This document shows, one piece after another, positions 338 to 41,453 of a stretch of DNA of 41,453 nucleotides. The stretch's first letter is position 1. Each line of letters begins with the position of its first letter. The notes under the pieces are model-generated. The model ran no database searches and was not told where the DNA came from. It saw only the letters and a program-made list of their open reading frames with translations. Position numbers and translations under genes: made by a program. This stretch comes from Candidatus Uhrbacteria bacterium (GTDB lineage Bacteria > Patescibacteriota > Patescibacteriia > 2-12-FULL-60-25). Where the stretch lies: positions 1 to 41,453 of the forward strand of contig JAUSEV010000009.1 in NCBI GenBank assembly GCA_030649995.1, written 5' to 3'.

Positions 338-494
338 TCCTTAGTGGGGGTTTTGCTCAAAGAAAGTTCGAACATCAATCAAAAAACACCGCCAATTTGT
401 ACTTTCAGAAAAATCGTAAGAATTTTATCAGCGTATCACTCAACTCATGCACAATGGATGTTTAACTGCAGCAGTAAAAAATAGAACATATTTT

Positions 495-875
495 ATGTCT
501 CTTAAATACTTTTTCCTTTTATTTGCTTCCACTATACTCATTACAAGACTTTTGCTTTGGCTGATGCCAAAACATGGCCCTACAATAGCAGGCTTGCAAT
601 TACATCATTATATGTACGGGTTGGTTTTAATCTTTATTTATATTTTGACTAAAAAACATCTTCTTTTAGCCATTGGTAGTGCTTTGGTCGTAGATGAGAT
701 CCCCTTATTTTTTATATTTGGTACACGGTATTGGCCATATGATCATTGGAAGCAGTACCATTCCTGGCAATCTATCATAGGCATCCTCATCATTTCTACC
801 TTGCTGTATTCATTTTTTCGTTTTCTGTGGCTGCCTTCGACTATTACTCCAATGAAGACAGAATCAAAACTATGA
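495..875 (+). CDS. Small integral membrane protein, unknown function
   Basis: A 126-residue protein with about three to four hydrophobic segments: residues 4-22, about 45-62, about 70-85 with the polar VVDEIP stretch, and about 98-115. A conserved-looking LQLHHYMYG motif lies between the first two segments, and a WPYDHW stretch precedes the last. The start at 495 is chosen because the hydrophobic N-terminus begins there; an upstream ATG at 447 would add 16 polar residues from the hairpin region. No family is recognised. It precedes another membrane protein on the same strand about 100 bp downstream. The histidines could bind metal, but that is only a guess. Confidence 0.6.
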   Translation: MSLKYFFLLFASTILITRLLLWLMPKHGPTIAGLQLHHYMYGLVLIFIYILTKKHLLLAIGSALVVDEIPLFFIFGTRYWPYDHWKQYHSWQSIIGILIISTLLYSFFRFLWLPSTITPMKTESKL

Positions 876-973
876 AAAAAATCACATCGCATCTATGGCC
901 GATCATTGCGCAAGATTTTTTTCTATTTTGCTATACTAACGACAGGTAGTTATCTAGTAGAGCCAATCATTTT

Positions 974-1537
974 ATGGAAAATCCAAAAAATAACCTGACA
1001 AAAGATATTGGCATAATCGTTTTAAGCGTTATCGTTGCGATTGTTTTGATAAAAACAGGGGCTATCGAAGAAATGTTAAAGCAAACGCAGGATTTGTGGT
1101 TTCTGGACAGCTTTATTGCCGGGATGTTTTTTACTTCTGTTTTTACCACTGTTCCCGCAATGGTTGCGCTTGGGGAAACAGCTCAATTATCCCAATCCGT
1201 GCTTCTTGTGGCGATTTTTGGCGGTCTTGGCGCTCTCTGCGGAGATTTGATTATTTTTCGATTTATGCGAGATAGATTTGGGGAAGACATTTTACGTTTA
1301 ATCAGAAATTCAGGAAACGGCAAGCTTCGATCCGTCATTCGACTAAAATCTTTTAGGTGGCTGACTTTCTTTTTGGGCGCATTGATCATTGCCTCGCCTT
1401 TGCCCGACGAACTGGGGCTCACCATGATGGGTTTCTCAAAAACCAAAACCTCCCTTTTTATTCCCGTCTCATTTATTTTTAATTTTTTAGGGATTTTAGT
1501 TATCGGCCTTGTTGCAAAAAATTTGCTCGGCCATTAA
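974..1537 (+). CDS. Polytopic membrane protein, possibly VTT/DedA-like
   Basis: A 187-residue protein with about five hydrophobic segments (residues 11-26, 46-62, 74-95, 128-145, 157-183). The segment FGGLGALCGDLIIFRFMRD and the later SPLPDELGLTMMGFS recall the glycine-rich re-entrant and proline-containing parts of VTT (SNARE-associated/DedA) membrane proteins. The match is by eye and weak. DedA-like proteins are linked to lipid flipping and membrane homeostasis, but no such role can be claimed here. A TATACT box at 931-936 is a possible -10 element with a leader of about 35 nt. No Shine-Dalgarno is seen before the ATG. Confidence 0.6.
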   Translation: MENPKNNLTKDIGIIVLSVIVAIVLIKTGAIEEMLKQTQDLWFLDSFIAGMFFTSVFTTVPAMVALGETAQLSQSVLLVAIFGGLGALCGDLIIFRFMRDRFGEDILRLIRNSGNGKLRSVIRLKSFRWLTFFLGALIIASPLPDELGLTMMGFSKTKTSLFIPVSFIFNFLGILVIGLVAKNLLGH

Positions 1538-1570
1538 ATGAGGATTGATCAATAATAAAAAAGAGCATTC

Positions 1571-1894
1571 ATGAAAAAATCAAAACTCAAATCGGATAAA
1601 TACAGAAAAGTACGAGGTGGGTATTCGCGCTTGTTGCAGGTGTCCTGCGCGAGCTGTGACGCTCCTCTTCTTTCCTATCAAAAAGATGGGCCGGGAGCGC
1701 TCAAACGGTTGTATCTTGATCGTATTTCGGAATCCAAAGATGAAACAACTGTAGGGGCGGGTTTTAAACCCACCCTTGTTTGCGGTGGCTGTAAAATGAT
1801 TTTGGGAACGTATTATCTTTATCCAAAAGAACACAGACCGGCTTTTCGTTTGTATCAGGGCGCGGTCACGAAAAAAATCATGAAGAATAAATGA
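1571..1894 (+). CDS. Small zinc-ribbon-type protein with an in-frame repeat
   Basis: A 107-residue protein with two CxxC pairs, CASC near residues 26-29 and CGGC near residues 72-75, which fits a four-cysteine zinc ribbon. The N-terminus is lysine-rich. Between the two knuckles residues 61-69 (VGAGFKPTL) are encoded by a decayed copy of a GTAGGGGCGGG palindrome (1751-1777). A better-preserved copy of the same palindrome lies inside the femX-like gene at 17720-17750 and encodes nearly the same peptide. The insertion lengthens the loop between the putative zinc knuckles without breaking the frame. No specific family or function is recognised. Confidence 0.6.
   Translation: MKKSKLKSDKYRKVRGGYSRLLQVSCASCDAPLLSYQKDGPGALKRLYLDRISESKDETTVGAGFKPTLVCGGCKMILGTYYLYPKEHRPAFRLYQGAVTKKIMKNK
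1751..1777. repeat. In-frame dispersed palindrome (decayed copy)
   Basis: A palindrome centred on GGGTTTTAAACCC, with the left arm beginning GTAGGGGCGGG and the right arm diverged (CACCCTT). It is read in frame within the zinc-ribbon gene. Confidence 0.7.
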
Positions 1895-1909
1895 ACTGCC
1901 ATCGAGGGA

Positions 1910-1999
1910 ACCACCTCCCTCATTCCCTCCTTCGTAAGGAGGGAGGTCAGACCGCTCAGAACCCTCTCCTTACGAAGGAGAGGGCAGGGTGAGGTGGTA
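1910..1999. repeat. Pair of dispersed palindromes (CCTTCGTAAGG family)
   Basis: Two hairpins lie between genes. One is at 1924-1944, centred on TTCGTAA. The other is at 1962-1984, with 10-bp arms and loop ACG. Flanking CCACCTC and GAGGTGG can also pair. The second unit with its flank, read on the minus strand, matches the element inside xseA at 37574-37609. The remaining bases up to 2102 show no gene. Confidence 0.8.
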
Positions 2000-2102
2000 G
2001 CGACGGGTGCTGCAGGTGGTTGGGAACCTTCAACCTTTCTGACAAATTTGCTATCATACAGAGAAAGGTCGAGGTTTTATTCATAACTAGAATATTTTTT
2101 GT

Positions 2103-2345
2103 ATGTTGAAAGAAAAAGCGTTAGGCCTTACCGTAGGCATCTTTTGTGGTGTGTGGTGGTTGGTTCTCATGATGTATTCTTTGAGCAGTGGCTATGGCAA
2201 GGAGCTCATCATGTTGGTTGGGCCAATGCATCCGGGCTTCTCATATAGTGCCGGTGGAGCTATTTGGATGGCCATCCTGCACTTCATCGTCGGTTATATT
2301 TTGGGTCATCTTTTTGCTTGGGTTTACAACCGATTCGCGAAGTAA
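2103..2345 (+). CDS. Small two-helix membrane protein (holin-like by resemblance)
   Basis: An 80-residue protein with two hydrophobic helices (residues 7-28 and about 53-75) separated by a glycine-rich stretch containing MHPGFSYSAGG, and ending in the short basic tail YNRFAK. The layout resembles small proteins annotated as phage-holin-like in many bacterial genomes, where the second helix ends in a W/Y-Y-N motif. That label is a resemblance, not evidence of lysis activity. The gene stands alone and is followed immediately by an intrinsic terminator at 2365-2397. No Shine-Dalgarno precedes the ATG. Confidence 0.6.
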   Translation: MLKEKALGLTVGIFCGVWWLVLMMYSLSSGYGKELIMLVGPMHPGFSYSAGGAIWMAILHFIVGYILGHLFAWVYNRFAK

Positions 2346-2364
2346 CACCCTTTTGAGGATCAAA

Positions 2365-2397
2365 GAAAAACAGTCATCGTAATGGGCTGTTTTTCTG
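2365..2397 (+). terminator. Intrinsic terminator
   Basis: GAAAAACAG (2365-2373) pairs with CTGTTTTTC (2387-2395), so the U-tract lies in the 3' arm. It closes the small membrane-protein gene upstream. Confidence 0.75.
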
Positions 2398-2719
2398 TCT
2401 ATTTTCCATCGATTTTCCATGATTTGACAGGAACCGTCAGTCTTGATAGACTCCCCCTACTAAACGTGAGGTTGACGGGGCGATGCAGCTAAGTTCCCGT
2501 CAATTTGAGCCAATTTGAATGGCTAAAATAGAGTTATAAACAAATAATCCACAGCCTTCACATTCTGAAGGTCGTTTGGTTTTTTGGCTCGAAACACGTT
2601 TTTCTAAAATTCAACCCCTGTTTTTTCTTGATCATCCGGTCACTATCCATCCCCGGCTGGGTTTTCAACCCATGGACGGTCTCGGACAAGAAAAACATTG
2701 GGTCTTTATCTCCATCACC
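2398..2719 (+). other. Geneless leader region upstream of rpoB
   Basis: No credible gene. A perfect 8-bp hairpin is formed by TTGACGGG (2472-2479) and CCCGTCAA (2496-2503), and AGTCT/AGACT form a smaller one just upstream. A well-spaced promoter could not be assigned. It may be the untranslated leader of rpoB. Confidence 0.45.
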
Positions 2720-5700
2720 ATGCCAGTGATGCAATTTCGTCGGCAGCCTCTGAAGGAAGCGGAGCGTCGGTATTTTACGGCCGCGCGAGACGCGATGGCT
2801 CTTCCGGATCTGATCGAGATTCAGAAGTCTTCTTATCGTTGGTTCATCGAGGAAGGGATTCGAGAGTTGTTCAAAGAGATTTCGCCGATTAAAGATTTTA
2901 TCGGACGCGATCTTGAGTTGTATGTTGTGGATTATGTTTTTGACGAACCGAAGTTTGATGAAAAAACGTCTAAAGCTAAAAACGTCAATTATGAAGCGCC
3001 TTTGCGCGTAAAAACGCGCCTCATCAACAAGCGTACCAATATTGAGCGTGAGCAAGAGGTGTATTTGGGTGATCTGCCGCTTATGACGGATCGCGGAACC
3101 TTTATCGTGAACGGGATTGAGCGCGTGATTGTGACGCAGCTCGTGCGATCAGCCGGAGCGTTTTTTACCGCCGAACTCATGCATGGCCGCCGTCATTACG
3201 GAGCCAAAATTATTCCCAATCGCGGGGCTTGGCTGGAATTTGAAACTGACGGGAACAACGTAATTTGGGTTAAGATTGATCGAAAACGCAAGGTGGCAGC
3301 CACATCGCTCGTGCGCGCGTTTGGCGTGGGTGATGATGAGGACATCAAACAATTATTCGCGGGTGTGGATGTTCATCCGCTCAATCATTATATCGAAGCG
3401 ACGTTAGCCAAAGACGCCGCCAAAAATGAGGAGGACGGAAATATCGAAGTCTATAAACGCATTCGACCGGGGGATTTGGCGACAGCCGATAATGCCAGAT
3501 CACTCATTCATTCGATGTTTTTTAATTTTGATCGGTATGATTTGGGACCGGTCGGTCGCTATAAGTTTAACCAACGTTTTGGGTTGCAGGCGGAACGAGA
3601 ATATGTGGCCAAGGAAGAGAATCGCATTCTCACCAAAGAGGATTTGATCGCGATTTTACGTGAAATTATTCGTTTGAACATCAGTCAGGAAGAGGCGGAC
3701 GACGTGGATCACTTGGGAAATCGTCGCGTGCGGGCGGTCGGAGAGCTTGTGCAAAACCGTTTTCGTATCGGACTGGCTCGTATGGAGCGCATCGTCAAAG
3801 ATCGTATGTCCACATTGGACATCACGACCATCACGCCGGCGAAATTGATCAATGCTCGACCGGTGATCGGCGCGGTGCGGGAATTTTTCATGAGTTCCCA
3901 GCTGTCGCAATTCATGGATCAAACCAATCCATTGTCAGAGCTCGAACACAAGCGTCGTTTATCGGCCATGGGTCCGGGAGGCCTTACGCGCGAACGCGCC
4001 GGATTTGATGTACGCGACGTGCATCGCACCCACTACGGTCGTATCTGTCCGATTGCCTCTCCGGAAGGCCCAAACATCGGGCTCGTCGGTCACCTCGCGT
4101 GTTATGCCCGTATTAATGACTATGGGTTTATTGAGACTCCGTATCGCGTGGTAAAAAGTTGGGCGAAGAATGATGGAAAAGATGCCATCGATGAAACGTT
4201 GCGCGTGGATGTTCGAGACGGAGAGGGAAAACTTGTTGTCGAAGCCAAAACCAAAATCACAAAAGCGTTGGCCGAAAAACTCAAAAATCTTTCCATTGAA
4301 ACCATTCCGGTGATCCCACATGTGACCGGCACCATTGTGTATCTGAACGCTTTTATCGAAGAGCGAGGAACCTCGACTCCGGCCACAACTCCGATTGATG
4401 AAAATGGATATTTCGTAACCGAACGCGTGAGTGCTCGTAAAAACGGGGAGCCGACGGTGGTTGATGTGCATGAAGTGGACTACATGGACGTTTCTTCCAA
4501 GGAAATTTTATCGATCGGCACGTCTCTTATTCCTTTCGTGGAACATGATGACGGTCACCGCGCGCTCATGGGTACAAACATGCAGCGGCAAGCCGTTCCC
4601 TGCATCAAGCCGGATGCGCCGCTCGTGGGTACGGGCGTTGAGCGTCGCGCGGCGATTGACTCGGGTCACACCATGATAGCATCCGAGGATGGCACGGTCG
4701 TTTCCGTTTCCGCCAAACATATTGAATTCCAAAACGCTCACGGCGAAATGCGCCGGTATGATCTCTTAAAATTTCAACGTTCCAACAGTTCCACCTGCAT
4801 TAACCAGCGACCGGTCGTGAATAAAGGACAAAAAGTTCGTGCCGGAGAGGTTTTGATTGATGGAACATCTTGCGAACGCGGGGAAATGGCTTTGGGTCAA
4901 AATTTGTTGTGCGCGTTTTTGAGCTGGGACGGATACAATTATGAAGACGCGATTATTTTGAGCGAGCGTTTGGTGCACACCGATCGCTTTACCTCGATCC
5001 ACATCGAGCATCACACTTTGGACGTGCGTGACACGAAGTTGGGACCGGAAGTCATTACATCCGACATTCCTAACGTGTCGGAAGAGAAATTTCGTAATTT
5101 GGATGAACATGGCATCGTGCGTATCGGCGCGGAAGTAAAATCCGGTGATATTTTGGTCGGAAAAATTACGCCCAAGGGCGAAACCGACCTTTCCGCCGAG
5201 GAAAAATTGTTGCGTGCGATCTTCGGGGAAAAAGCGCGAGACGTGCGCGACTCCTCTTTGTATTTGGAGCATGGGGAAAAAGGTAAGGTGGTGGATGTGA
5301 AAATATTTTCCCGCGAGGCCGGAGATAAATTGCAGCCGGGAGTGCTGCGTCAGATCGTCGTTTCCGTAGCCGATCTTCGCAAGATTCAAGCCGGCGATAA
5401 GTTGGCGGGACGCCACGGAAACAAAGGAGTGATTTCTAAAATCGTGCCGGTTGAGGATATGCCGTTTTTGGAGGATGGCACGTCGATCGACGTTATTTTG
5501 TCCCCGTTGGGCGTGGTTTCGCGTATGAATTTGGGACAAATTTTGGAAACCCATTTGGGATTGGCGGCCAATGCTCTCGGGTATCGCGTGGCCACCCCCG
5601 TGTTCGACGGGGTGCCGGAAAAAATCATTCGTGAACAGTTGGTCGCCGCCGGTTTTCCCAATGATGGGAAGATTGCGCTGTATGACGGTCGCACCGGCCA

Positions 5701-10203: not shown

Positions 10204-10213
10204 TATATAATGA

Positions 10214-10261
10214 GTAGATTGCTATATTTTTGGGTAGATTTAGTCACTACTTGTGTAGATT
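10214..10261 (+). promoter_or_regulatory. Three direct repeats (GTAGATT) at 20-bp spacing
   Basis: GTAGATT occurs at 10214-10220, 10234-10240 and 10254-10260, exactly 20 bp apart, so the copies face nearly the same side of the helix. They lie just upstream of the HTH-GHKL gene, where the -35 box should be. An operator bound by that gene's own MerR-type domain is an inference. Confidence 0.6.
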
Positions 10262-10263
10262 TA

Positions 10264-10278
10264 TATGGTATGATACCA
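10264..10278 (+). promoter_or_regulatory. Likely -10 region inside a small palindrome
   Basis: TATGAT at 10269-10274 is a good -10 box and lies in the palindrome ATGGTA-TGA-TACCAT. No good -35 is seen at the normal spacing. The ATG is 11 nt downstream, so the mRNA leader would be very short. Confidence 0.45.
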
Positions 10279-10285
10279 TTTCTAT

Positions 10286-11005
10286 ATGGAAGAAAAGCTG
10301 CTCACAATCAGCCAAGCCGCTGAATATCTCGGTGTTTCTTTGAATACGCTTCGTCGTTGGGATGAAAGCGGAAAATTAGTTGCGATCAAAAAAGATGGCG
10401 GCACTCATCGATATTACCGTGAAAAAGATTTAGAAATTTTTACTAGTGATTTAATGAGGTTTGCCTCGGAGTGGATCCAAGATGGCATTGAGTTTCCGGG
10501 TACGTTTTATTGTCCGACGAGCTCAATTTTTAATGCAAGGCTTACAAAAATGGAGTCCGCGCTGATGCAGAAGCCAGGGTTTGAAAAATTGTATTCTTTA
10601 ATTGTTTTAATTGCCGGGGAGATCGGGGATAATTCATTTGCCCACAATTTGGGAAAGTGGCCGGATACAGCAGGAATTTTTTTCGGCTACGACCTTGCTA
10701 AAGGCATCATCGTACTTGCCGATCGAGGGTTGGGGATTTTAGAAACGTTGCGTCAAGTCCGTCCGGAACTTCCGAGTCATGTTGTGGCCGTTGAAGTTGC
10801 TTTTACCGAATTCATCTCCGGTCGTGCGCCGGAAAAGCGGGGGAACGGGCTTAAGCTTGTTCGCGAGGTCATCACGAATCAGCCATTTGATCTATTCTAT
10901 ATCAGCGGCGATGCCGAAGTGCGTATGAAAGGCTCGGATAAAGTTTTTCGTGTTACCCGTGGTCAACGTATCGTGCGAGGATGTTTAGCGAAAATAGAGT
11001 TTTAA
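10286..11005 (+). CDS. MerR-type HTH fused to GHKL ATPase
   Basis: A 239-residue two-domain protein. Residues 6-45 (LTISQAAEYLGVSLNTLRRW...GGTHRYY) are a MerR/excisionase-type winged helix-turn-helix. Residues about 72-200 carry the GHKL (histidine kinase/anti-sigma kinase) ATP-binding motifs: N box E112-x3-N116 with H120 N121, G1 box D146-R-G-L-G150, and G2 box R185-G-N-G-L189. It has no transmembrane or phosphoacceptor domain. By analogy with SpoIIAB/RsbW the ATPase may phosphorylate or bind the STAS-like protein encoded 16 bp downstream, here controlling DNA binding directly. That mechanism is inference. A paralogue without the HTH lies at 30524. The start follows an iteron-bearing promoter with no Shine-Dalgarno. 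Confidence 0.85.
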   Translation: MEEKLLTISQAAEYLGVSLNTLRRWDESGKLVAIKKDGGTHRYYREKDLEIFTSDLMRFASEWIQDGIEFPGTFYCPTSSIFNARLTKMESALMQKPGFEKLYSLIVLIAGEIGDNSFAHNLGKWPDTAGIFFGYDLAKGIIVLADRGLGILETLRQVRPELPSHVVAVEVAFTEFISGRAPEKRGNGLKLVREVITNQPFDLFYISGDAEVRMKGSDKVFRVTRGQRIVRGCLAKIEF

Positions 11006-11021
11006 AATCCTTCACAAGTAT

Positions 11022-11315
11022 ATGAAATTACAACTAGAAAAATTTGGCAAAACATTAATATCGCGGGAATTAGGGAGTGAGGCTTTTAAGGCATTTCAGC
11101 CAACGTTGCGCGAGCTTCCGAAGAATGAAGGGTTGGAAATAGATTTTTCCGGTGTATTCACGTTATCGCCGTCATGGGCGGATGAATTTTTAAGTCCGCT
11201 GTTAAATCAGCTGGATGAGCGTTTGGTGCTTTTACCGAGTGATAATCTTTCCGTGCATGCGACCATCAGGATTCTTGAAGAGGCGAATAAGCAATCGTTT
11301 AAGATGCAACCATAA
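11022..11315 (+). CDS. STAS-like protein (DUF4325 type), partner of the GHKL ATPase
   Basis: A 97-residue protein. The core DFSGVFTLSPSWADEF (residues 41-56) matches the STAS-like DUF4325 pattern and resembles the loop of anti-sigma antagonists in which a serine is phosphorylated. Here S49 or S51 would be the candidate. FGKTLISR at residues 8-15, SPSWADEF and DNLSV at 74-78 are shared with the paralogue at 31184. It is encoded 16 bp after the HTH-GHKL gene on the same strand and is almost certainly its functional partner. Serine phosphorylation is an inference from SpoIIAA/RsbV biology. Confidence 0.8.
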   Translation: MKLQLEKFGKTLISRELGSEAFKAFQPTLRELPKNEGLEIDFSGVFTLSPSWADEFLSPLLNQLDERLVLLPSDNLSVHATIRILEEANKQSFKMQP

Positions 11316-26343: not shown

Positions 26344-26426
26344 TGCCGCGGGAGGGACTTGAACCCTCATGACCTTGCGGTCGCTAGCTCCTGAAGCTAG
26401 TGCGTCTGCCATTTCGCCACCGCGGC
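26344..26426 (-). tRNA. tRNA-Leu (anticodon CAG)
   Basis: An 83-nt class II tRNA on the minus strand. The acceptor is GCCGCGG/CCGCGGC and the anticodon loop is TTCAGGA. A long variable arm (CGACCGCAAGGTCATG) and T-arm GGTTCAAGTCC are present. CCA is not encoded. Confidence 0.97.
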
Positions 26427-26461
26427 ATTATCTGAAGAGAATCAAAAACGTGTGTTTCCGC

Positions 26462-26490
26462 ATGATGCGGCAGAAAAACGTCCGCGTCAA
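26462..26490 (-). promoter_or_regulatory. Possible tRNA-Leu promoter
   Basis: On the minus strand: TTGACG (26485-26490), 17-bp spacer, CATCAT (26462-26467). It is back to back with a plus-strand TTGACA at 26496-26501 that probably belongs to the sigma-factor gene, for which no clear -10 was found. Confidence 0.45.
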
Positions 26491-26572
26491 CCCTCTTGAC
26501 AAAATTTTCAAAATGCGGTTGACTATCGTCACGTTTTTGTTGTTCAACGCAGGGGACAAATTGGGAGGAGCG

Positions 26573-27256
26573 ATGAACAAAAAGGGAGGAGAAAGAAAGA
26601 GGGTGGATTGGTTCGACCGCGATCCGCCGACGGAAATCGTCCACAGCGCGGTCGCCAGGTTGATCCGACGGTTACCGTCGCGCGTTCGGTACGATGACCT
26701 GTACTCCGTCGGGCTCATGGCGCTCGTGCAGGCGGCGCAGCGATTCGATGCGAGCCGTGGCGTGACCTTTCGCACTTATGCTAAGTGTCGGGTGCAGGGC
26801 GCCATGCTGGACGAATTGCGTCGGTTTGACCCCGCGTCTCGTGAGCAGCGCCTCGCCATCCGTCGGGGTCTCGAGTCGTCGGATGCCGCGCCTCGTGAGG
26901 TCGATATCTCCGCCGCCGCTCTCGTCGAGGATCCTGTCGCCTTGCCGGATGAGCAGATCGAGTACCGTCAAGACCTGCATTCCATGCGCGAGATGGTGCG
27001 GTACCTGCCCGAGCGGCTGCAGATCATCTACGGTCTGCGTTTTCAGGAGGGGTGGCTGCTCGGTGCCATCGCCGACCGTCTGAACATTACCGCCGCGCGC
27101 GTTTGTCAGCTGTGTGGGGAGGTGATGCGTCGACTCTCCGAACTTATGGGAGCTCCGCAGCCCACGAAGGTGGTGATCCGTCGCCCCCGCCGTTCTCGGA
27201 TCCTGCGTCCGACGCTCGAGGAAGCCATTCCTCCGCCGCGCGCGATGTACGCCTGA
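26573..27256 (+). CDS. FliA/WhiG-like alternative sigma factor
   Basis: A 227-residue group-3 sigma-70 family protein. Region 2 (about residues 40-90) reads RYDDLYSVGLMALVQAAQRF then GVTFRTYAKCRVQGAMLDEL, with RRFD after it; the GAMLDELRR signature is typical of FliA/WhiG. Region 4 (about 150-195) contains YLPERLQIIYGLRFQEGWLL and the helix-turn-helix IADRLNITAARVCQLCGEVM. Region 3 is short or degenerate. A strong Shine-Dalgarno (GGGAGGAG) precedes the ATG, and a terminator follows. No flagellar genes are in the window, so its regulon is unknown. In other bacteria this class is often held by GHKL anti-sigma factors. Confidence 0.88.
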   Translation: MNKKGGERKRVDWFDRDPPTEIVHSAVARLIRRLPSRVRYDDLYSVGLMALVQAAQRFDASRGVTFRTYAKCRVQGAMLDELRRFDPASREQRLAIRRGLESSDAAPREVDISAAALVEDPVALPDEQIEYRQDLHSMREMVRYLPERLQIIYGLRFQEGWLLGAIADRLNITAARVCQLCGEVMRRLSELMGAPQPTKVVIRRPRRSRILRPTLEEAIPPPRAMYA

Positions 27257-30298: not shown

Positions 30299-30373
30299 GC
30301 GCCCTTAGTTTAACGGATAAAACTGCAGCCTTCGAAGCTGTTGATGGGGGTTCGATTCCCTCAGGGCGCACCA
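30299..30373 (+). tRNA. tRNA-Arg (anticodon TCG)
   Basis: The acceptor is GCGCCCT/AGGGCGC, the anticodon loop CTTCGAA and the T-arm GGTTCGATTCC. The 3' CCA is encoded (30371-30373). A strong terminator follows 3 nt later. Confidence 0.96.
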
Positions 30374-30523: not shown

Positions 30524-31111
30524 ATGAACGCGCTTCATTGGGCCACATCGTCAACCGGATCGAATCCACCAAACGATTTTTATTGCACCACGCGTGACGT
30601 TGGTCAAGCGAGAGTTGAGAAGCTGGTGGCGGAATTCATCCGTCAGAGTTGGAACAGTAACGAAGCAGGCCTTCTTGCTGCCGTCATCGGCGAGTTGGTT
30701 GGTAATTGTTTCGACCACAACTTGGGGAAATGGCGAGACGTCCCTGGTTGCTGGCTTGAGACGATAGTAGAGCGCGAAGTGTTTCGAGCTATCGTGGCTG
30801 ATCGTGGTCAGGGTGTCCTTGCAACTTTAAGACAGGTACTTCCGGAGCTTCAAGATGATAAACAAGCCCTGCTCGTCGCTTTTACCAAGAACATCACCGG
30901 CCGAGCTCCAGAACAGCGTGGCAATGGATTAAAATTCGTTATTCGTTCACTGGGTCAACTCAACATAGAGGCCTTTCAGTACCAGTCCGGCACAGCAAAT
31001 TTCGCTTTTGCAGGTCAGTTGGACTTAATAGGCATTTCTCGCTATATTGACGATACACAGCCCGAAGTCGGGGGAACGTATTTTGCATTAACCGTAAGAA
31101 AATCATTATGA
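30524..31111 (+). CDS. GHKL ATPase, paralogue without HTH
   Basis: A 195-residue protein. The GHKL motifs are E57-x3-N61 with H65 N66 (GELVGNCFDHNLGKW), D93-R-G-Q-G97 and R132-G-N-G-L136. It shares FYC-T, DHNLGKW, ADRG-G-L-TLRQV-PEL and GRAPE-RGNGLK blocks with the protein at 10286 but lacks its DNA-binding domain and has a longer C-terminus. The likely partner is the STAS-like gene 72 bp downstream. A TATGCT box ends 5 nt before the ATG, implying leaderless transcription. An anti-sigma or kinase role is inferred from the fold only. Confidence 0.83.
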   Translation: MNALHWATSSTGSNPPNDFYCTTRDVGQARVEKLVAEFIRQSWNSNEAGLLAAVIGELVGNCFDHNLGKWRDVPGCWLETIVEREVFRAIVADRGQGVLATLRQVLPELQDDKQALLVAFTKNITGRAPEQRGNGLKFVIRSLGQLNIEAFQYQSGTANFAFAGQLDLIGISRYIDDTQPEVGGTYFALTVRKSL

Positions 31112-31148
31112 CCCATTCGATTATAACTCAGGGTCATAGTAGTGAGCT

Positions 31149-31176
31149 TGGACTTCGGTTGAGCTCAGTCGAAACC
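31149..31176. repeat. Dispersed-repeat fragment between the GHKL and STAS-like genes
   Basis: The sequence GACTTCGGTTGAGCTCAGTC and its flank resemble the common TTCGACTGAGCTCAACCGAA repeat. It occupies most of the 72-bp gap. Confidence 0.5.
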
Positions 31177-31183
31177 TCGAACT

Positions 31184-31456
31184 ATGAGAATTGATGTCAG
31201 CAAATTTGGAAAAACTTTGATTTCGCGTCCGGCCGGTCGTGATGCCTTTTTGAGTGCGCGAGCGTACAACATTCCAAAAGATAGCACAGAAACCATTGAG
31301 TTGGATTTTTCGAATGTTCAAGTTTTGACACCATCATGGGCTGATGAATTTATTCGTGGGTTGAAAGAAGAACTCGGCGCTTCTCGAATCAAAACCATCG
31401 AGGGTGATAACTTGAGTGTAAAAACAACTTTCGAGACATTGCGAGCAGCGGTGTAG
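31184..31456 (+). CDS. STAS-like protein (DUF4325 type), second copy
   Basis: A 90-residue paralogue of the protein at 11022. It shares FGKTLISR (residues 8-15), ELDFSNVQVLTPSWADEF (39-56) and DNLSV (75-79). The candidate phosphoacceptor equivalents are T49 and S51. It follows the HTH-less GHKL ATPase, repeating the gene order of the first module. The gap between the two genes has been invaded by a repeat fragment. It is probably a cytosolic antagonist or ligand of the ATPase. Confidence 0.78.
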   Translation: MRIDVSKFGKTLISRPAGRDAFLSARAYNIPKDSTETIELDFSNVQVLTPSWADEFIRGLKEELGASRIKTIEGDNLSVKTTFETLRAAV

Positions 31457-41255: not shown

Positions 41256-41453
41256 GCGTGTGGCGAAGTTTTAAGCCGTCCATTGAAAAGAAACAAAAAA
41301 TTTTCATAAAAAAGAGCTAATAGACATTTCGTGTTGGTGATTTAGTTGTTTTTCTTGTAGATGTAGCTCCGTTCTGAAATAATTAGGGAATATGATCCCT
41401 AATCGTCACAAAAAAACATTGCCCGACCTGTCACAAGTCGATGAGTAAATGGG
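41256..41453. other. End of window, no gene seen
   Basis: An A/T-rich stretch with one 8-bp hairpin (ATTAGGGA/TCCCTAAT, about 41382-41403). A short frame beginning at 41392 has 18 codons and is not supported. Confidence 0.4.

What the first reader, a model, noticed from the sequence alone, without database searches (positions are those of the whole stretch)
10286..11315. MerR-type HTH fused to a GHKL ATPase, paired with a STAS-like protein
The gene pair combines a DNA-binding domain, an anti-sigma/histidine-kinase-type ATPase with intact N, G1 and G2 boxes, and a DUF4325-type STAS-like partner with a conserved SPSWADEF loop. In known partner switching the GHKL protein holds a sigma factor. 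Here the DNA-binding domain is in the same chain, so ATP state or partner phosphorylation could switch promoter binding directly. I know of no characterised system with this architecture.
Basis: partly seen in the sequence, partly recalled or inferred. Interest (0 to 1): 0.75.

Follow-up and report, generated by a model that had tools for sequence, protein, structure and literature searches.

The report
Self-regulating DNA-binding kinase and STAS partner
A two-gene switch found in roughly one in nine sampled members of a phylum of very small bacteria (Patescibacteria) appears to fuse an ATP-using anti-sigma-type kinase to a DNA-binding domain that recognises a conserved repeat array at its own promoter; it looks like a new arrangement of a kinase/STAS switch whose first relatives were characterised only in 2026.

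Summary
10286-11005 encodes one chain with a BldC/MerR-type HTH and a GHKL ATPase; 11022-11315 encodes a DUF4325 STAS-like partner. ATP-site residues and STAS Ser51 are invariant in 43-44 homologues, under strong purifying selection. An AlphaFold model of a read-through pair appears to dock the partners. The pair occurs, nearly always together, in 32 of 287 sampled Patescibacteria; identities exceed those of RpoC in the same genomes, flanks differ and an empty rpoC-ruvC site exists, so it spreads horizontally.

New here: a conserved operator of 3-4 direct repeats (TTGnnTAGnTTT, 20-21 bp apart), the last on the -35 of an extended -10 promoter whose transcript is probably leaderless. Array searches in nine genomes found convincing copies only at the pair. 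So the HTH-kinase most likely controls its own promoter, with the STAS protein as kinase substrate/antagonist.

There the repressor HTH is on the STAS protein or a toxin is present; here the HTH is on the kinase, with no conserved effector. New variant of a known kind; output and signal unknown.

The parts
10211..10220 (+). Operator box 1 (TGAGTAGATT)
   Evidence: Conserved column block 20 bp upstream of box 2 in 42 loci; box positions listed.
10230..10241 (+). Operator box 2 (TTGGGTAGATTT)
   Evidence: TAG conserved in 98% of 42 loci; mean 1.39 bits per column against 0.07 in the flank upstream.
10251..10262 (+). Operator box 3 (TTGTGTAGATTT), overlapping the -35 hexamer TTGTGT (10251-10256)
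   Evidence: Anchor box in 42 loci (its TTG and TAG are therefore 100% by construction); no other match of the box-promoter composite at up to 1 mismatch in this genome.
10271..10279 (+). Extended -10 (TGATACCAT; hexamer TACCAT 10274-10279), 17 bp from the -35; start codon 6 nt downstream, so probably a leaderless mRNA
   Evidence: Start codon 6-8 nt after the -10 in 38 of 45 loci; TG.TA..AT columns conserved.
10286..11005 (+). HTH-GHKL protein, 239 aa: BldC/MerR-type HTH (aa 5-52), linker helix with invariant W63, GHKL ATPase (aa ~79-239; N box E112..N116, G1 D146-G150, G2 R185-G188)
11022..11315 (+). DUF4325 STAS-like partner, 97 aa, invariant Ser51 in the S-P-S-W loop
10207..11305 (+). Block of DNA conserved between distantly related Patescibacteria (operator to end of the STAS gene); flanks not shared
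   Evidence: blastn of the window against the fetched loci; neighbour clustering.
30524..31111 (+). Paralogous GHKL protein without HTH (195 aa)
   Evidence: Second match of the HTH-GHKL protein in this genome, 39% identity.
31184..31456 (+). DUF4325 partner of the HTH-less paralogue (90 aa, TPSWADEF)
   Evidence: PF14213 36.7 bits, over cut-off; ORF.

Best explanation
The pair is a self-contained, horizontally exchanged kinase/STAS switch in which the kinase is itself the sequence-specific DNA-binding protein. Its BldC-type HTH binds 3-4 direct-repeat boxes 20-21 bp apart. The last box covers the -35 of the pair's own extended -10 promoter, so bound protein most likely represses its own (largely leaderless) transcript. 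The GHKL domain binds the DUF4325 STAS partner and probably phosphorylates its invariant Ser51, as VapK and CapK do to VapS and CapS. Partner occupancy or phosphorylation would then change DNA binding and reset expression. Shown by sequence: the domains, the conserved active-site and Ser residues, the conserved operator, the pairing and horizontal spread. Inferred: HTH binding to the boxes, repression, phosphorylation and the coupling of the two. Unknown: the signal (ssDNA/DNA damage by analogy only) and the physiological output.
For: HTH matches and closest fold BldC, 48% identity over 48 columns at 1.4 A; BldC binds direct repeats head to tail (PMC5859096). GHKL fold; invariant ATP-site residues and STAS S51. 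dN/dS estimates 0.03-0.08 (kinase) and 0.06-0.12 (STAS). Operator: 42 loci, boxes at constant spacing with 1.4 bits per column for boxes 2 and 3 against 0.07 upstream; the same half-site recurs in other geometries in distant homologues, e.g. as palindromes in L008. Array and composite-promoter searches in nine genomes: zero-mismatch matches only at the pair, one-mismatch matches elsewhere scattered. AF2 read-through pair pLDDT 89.2, pTM 0.79 against 0.78 for the kinase alone. Related kinase/substrate pairs shown biochemically; VapS fragment is DUF4325 at 56.5 bits.
Against: No experiment. In CapK, deleting the HTH changed neither phosphorylation nor output, so an HTH next to such a kinase can be dispensable. 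The relation of the GHKL domain to a CapK/VapK-like phage kinase is weak (hhalign E 2.5e-4, probability 43%). In the profile alignment, the VapS Ser taken to be S48 falls on P50, one residue from S51 (the S48 identification is my inference from tag length). Single-box target promoters would not have been found, so a wider regulon is not excluded. Sequence does not separate repression from activation.
Confidence: 0.55

Rival explanations
1. Controller of the adjacent operon, like CapK/CapS: the pair senses damage and tunes whatever gene lies downstream, by read-through or a second operator.
For: Downstream gene is co-directional in 38 of 42 loci; a few loci have restriction-modification genes next door (Eco57I/N6-methylase in 4 of 140 neighbour proteins).
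Against: Co-orientation is near the local background of 76% (Fisher p 0.04 or 0.27 by gene-length cut). No neighbour family recurs in more than 4 of 43 loci, whereas 348 of 443 capKS loci are followed by an immune operon. No second array in the nine genomes searched.
Confidence: 0.15
2. Classical anti-sigma partner switch: the GHKL domain holds an alternative sigma factor, the STAS protein releases it, and the HTH only tethers the complex or autoregulates.
For: GHKL/STAS pairs do this in SpoIIAB/SpoIIAA and RsbW (established knowledge); the genome has six Sigma70_r2 proteins, one in the window at 26369-27256.
Against: No neighbouring gene family, hence no sigma gene, is linked to the pair across loci; the pair moves between distant lineages without one.
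Confidence: 0.12
3. Global regulator: the HTH controls many promoters through single boxes that pattern searches cannot tell from chance.
For: A 7-bp half-site occurs often by chance, so single sites are not testable here; strong purifying selection implies a real function.
Against: Two-box hits in this genome with up to 3 mismatches do not exceed the reversed-pattern control (72 vs 87).
Confidence: 0.13
4. Toxin-antitoxin or addiction module: one of the two proteins is toxic alone and the array autoregulates the pair.
For: Two small genes, autoregulatory operator, horizontal spread without partners; VapKSC is a related TA system.
Against: No toxin domain in either protein, no conserved third gene, and in VapKSC the toxin is VapC, not VapK or VapS.
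Confidence: 0.05

Closest known systems
CapK/CapS (Chambers et al., EMBO J 2026, PMC13373217)
   Same: Adjacent GHKL kinase and STAS partner; the kinase has an N-terminal HTH; autoregulated promoter; invariant Ser in the STAS loop.
   Different: CapK is HTH-STAS-GHKL and its HTH is dispensable; the repressor is CapS (STAS-wHTH) on palindromes; an immune operon usually follows. Here the kinase lacks the middle STAS domain, the STAS protein has no DNA-binding domain, the boxes are direct repeats and no effector is conserved.
VapKSC (same paper; PDB 9z7o VapS)
   Same: GHKL kinase plus a DUF4325 STAS protein (VapS fragment 56.5 bits to PF14213).
   Different: VapK has STAS-GHKL and no HTH; a VapC toxin is in the operon. 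No toxin gene here.
SpoIIAB/SpoIIAA, RsbW/RsbV partner switching
   Same: GHKL fold with E..N, DxGxG and GxG motifs; STAS partner with a loop Ser.
   Different: No DNA-binding domain in those kinases; they act on sigma factors; no linked sigma gene here.
BldC / MerR-like regulators (PMC5859096)
   Same: HTH is closest to BldC by fold; direct-repeat operator; the residue aligned with specificity residue Arg30 is conserved (R24).
   Different: BldC is a 68-aa stand-alone protein with contiguous 9-bp sites; here the HTH is fused to an ATPase and boxes are 20-21 bp apart.
GHKL plus DUF4325 pair in Clostridioides phage ES-S-0173-01 (L131)
   Same: GHKL protein (308 aa) followed 14 nt later by DUF4325; STAS parts align at E 1e-10.
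   Different: No MerR HTH; extra N-terminal region; phage-borne.

Membership tests
CapK/CapS | Kinase with HTH-STAS-GHKL architecture | tested here: not met
   The 239-aa protein has HTH then GHKL; in the model only one helix (55-66) lies between the HTH and the first GHKL helix at 79, no room for a STAS domain.
CapK/CapS | STAS partner carries a C-terminal wHTH repressor domain | tested here: not met
   97 aa, only DUF4325 matched.
CapK/CapS | Immune operon immediately downstream in most loci | tested here: not met
   No recurrent neighbour family; defence-type neighbours in a few of 43 loci.
CapK/CapS | ssDNA-activated phosphorylation of a conserved STAS Ser | not testable with these tools
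   S51 invariant 44/44; the chemistry needs an experiment.
VapKSC | VapC (PIN) toxin in the operon | tested here: not met
   No gene conserved beyond the pair.
DUF4325 (PF14213) | Match to the Pfam model | tested here: met
   Window protein 21.4 bits, just under the 23 cut-off; all 44 homologues match at E <= 0.1, best E 5.7e-10; the paralogue at 31184 is over the cut-off.
GHKL ATPase superfamily | Bergerat fold with N, G1 and G2 motifs | tested here: met
   AF2 model and Foldseek to TopoII/TRAP1/GyrB, best E 1e-4; motifs invariant.
SpoIIAB-type anti-sigma kinase | Binds and inhibits a sigma factor | not testable with these tools
   No linked sigma gene across loci; six sigma factors in the genome.
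BldC/MerR-like HTH | HTH_17/MerR fold | tested here: met
BldC/MerR-like HTH | Binding to direct-repeat DNA sites | tested here: inconclusive
   Conserved direct repeats at the promoter; binding not measured, and spacing differs from BldC's 9 bp.

The most novel reading that the evidence does not exclude
A one-component kinase-repressor: a GHKL serine kinase that is itself the promoter-bound regulator, whose DNA occupancy is set directly by ATP and its STAS substrate. It would travel as a stand-alone two-gene regulatory cassette through Patescibacteria with no dedicated effector.
Probability: 0.35. Interest if true: 0.7.

Novelty: new variant of a known kind. Interest (0 to 1): 0.55.

Why it matters
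It would show that the kinase/STAS module characterised in 2026 has a further layout in which the kinase, not the substrate, reads DNA. It also supplies a defined operator, candidate phosphosite and promoter, so that the switch can be tested outside uncultured hosts. Spread across Patescibacteria, whose regulation is little studied, with no fixed effector, raises the question of what such a cassette does for its host.

Tried and rejected
Distal regulon: operator-array and composite-promoter patterns in nine genomes gave no convincing second site. Phage or plasmid carriage: only HTH-level hits in annotated phages and plasmids; one IMG/VR contig carries the pair. Conserved neighbour or effector: none. 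Neighbour orientation as evidence for adjacent-gene control: not clearly beyond background. MADS defence component mad1 (PADLOC E 2.9e-14): covers the HTH only. IS607 transposase similarity: mainly the HTH. Getting VapK/CapK sequences for direct comparison: a VapS fragment search in plasmids found only a short Leptotrichia DUF4325 gene.

Full report
Observation. Both ORFs exist as described. The first is a BldC/MerR-type HTH (aa 5-50) followed by a GHKL ATPase; the second is a DUF4325 STAS-like protein. Pfam misses the ATPase in the window protein, but its model (pLDDT 86.7) matches topoisomerase II, TRAP1, GyrB, ParE and a histidine kinase by fold. E112, N116, D146, R147, G148, G150, R185, G186 and N187 are invariant in 43 homologues, and S51, W52, D54 and E55 of the STAS protein in 44; S49 is S/T/A. 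dN/dS estimates are about 0.03-0.08 for the kinase and 0.06-0.12 for the STAS gene.

Distribution and transfer. Full-length HTH-GHKL proteins occur in 32 of 287 genomes sampled across the phylum (counted by hand from the match list). A pattern-based scan of 84,980 species gave 45 loci, and the full-length matches with a named lineage are Patescibacteria. The STAS gene follows in essentially all loci not cut by a contig end. Protein identity to the window copy is 91% in G062, 86% in G304, 81% in G147 and 81% in G059, while RpoC in the same genomes is 63%, 51%, 56% and 57% identical; in the same-genus G001 the values are 87% and 86%. Conserved DNA runs from 10207 to about 11305 and no flank is shared. 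In the same-family genome G003 (L153) ruvC starts about 8 nt after the rpoC stop, an empty site; in G001 the pair sits elsewhere. Horizontal transfer is the simplest reading. Synonymous divergence around or above 1 means it is not very recent.

Operator. In 42 non-redundant loci, boxes with the consensus TTGnnTAGnTTT recur at 20-21 bp, with TAG at +5, -16, -36 and weakly -57 relative to the first T of the last box. Information averages 1.4 bits per column in boxes 2 and 3, 0.67 in box 1 and 0.07 upstream. The last box was used as the anchor, so its own conservation is partly by construction; boxes 1 and 2 were not. The last box overlaps a -35 (TTGTGT) 17 bp from an extended -10 (TGnTAnnAT). 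The start codon lies 6-8 nt after the -10 in 38 of 45 loci, so the transcript is probably leaderless. Distant homologues keep the half-site in other geometries; L008 has two palindromes of it. Array and composite-promoter searches of nine genomes gave zero-mismatch hits only at the pair, and looser hits in this genome were at the level of the reversed-pattern control.

Mechanism. The box array at its own promoter, a BldC-like HTH (BldC binds direct repeats, PMC5859096) and a box on the -35 point to autoregulation, most simply repression. The GHKL/STAS half is read by analogy with CapK/CapS and VapKSC, where the kinase phosphorylates a loop Ser of the STAS protein on DNA damage (PMC13373217); VapS belongs to DUF4325. 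For the complex, locus L052, in which the two genes are in frame, was read through its stops and modelled with 75 aligned sequences: pLDDT 89.2, pTM 0.79, linker disordered. With STAS making up over a quarter of the chain, a pTM at the level of the kinase alone (0.78) implies a confident placement; this is an inference from pTM, as no PAE or coordinates were available.

Comparison. CapK's own HTH was dispensable, which is a caution. The window holds a second, HTH-less pair at 30524-31456, so HTH-bearing and HTH-free versions coexist in one genome.

Limits. Rows outside named lineages ('bacterium isolate') were not classified. Pattern searches cannot detect single-box targets. The GHKL link to CapK/VapK rests on fold, partner and weak profile similarity. 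Signal, direction of regulation and output are unknown.

Noticed in passing
window 30524-31456: A second GHKL + DUF4325 pair without HTH lies downstream of tRNA-Arg (30299-30373).
   Followed up: partly
L164 (IMGVR_UViG_3300022555_001665) 414-4714: A contig of the viral collection carries the HTH-GHKL gene and start of the STAS gene beside ORFs that look like a terminase large subunit and a large serine recombinase, with two boxes about 21 bp apart; a possible vehicle for transfer. ORF functions were read by eye, not searched.
   Followed up: partly
L131 2060-3273: Clostridioides phage ES-S-0173-01 encodes a 308-aa GHKL protein followed by a DUF4325 protein, unannotated, resembling VapK/VapS.
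   Followed up: partly
window 10271-10286 and homologous loci: Start codon 6-8 nt after the -10 in 38 of 45 loci: probably leaderless; in at least two loci with a longer leader (L065, L137) a Shine-Dalgarno-like GAGG appears in it.
   Followed up: yes
window 26369-27256: Sigma70 region 2 protein (one of six in the genome), about 3.3 kb upstream of the HTH-less pair.
   Followed up: no
window 41336-41363 and many contig ends of G000: GGTGATTTAGTTGTTTTTCTTGTAGATG recurs near the ends of several contigs (e.g. C9:92, C10:92, C21:92, C34:32), probably a repeat that breaks the assembly.
   Followed up: no
G001:C59:4415-6949: A second RpoC-like match (49%) besides the 86% one in G001; possible contamination of that MAG.
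   Followed up: no
L152, L154 (rpoC-ruvC interval): The rpoC-ruvC gap holds different reverse-strand ORFs in other family members, so it is a variable spot.
   Followed up: partly
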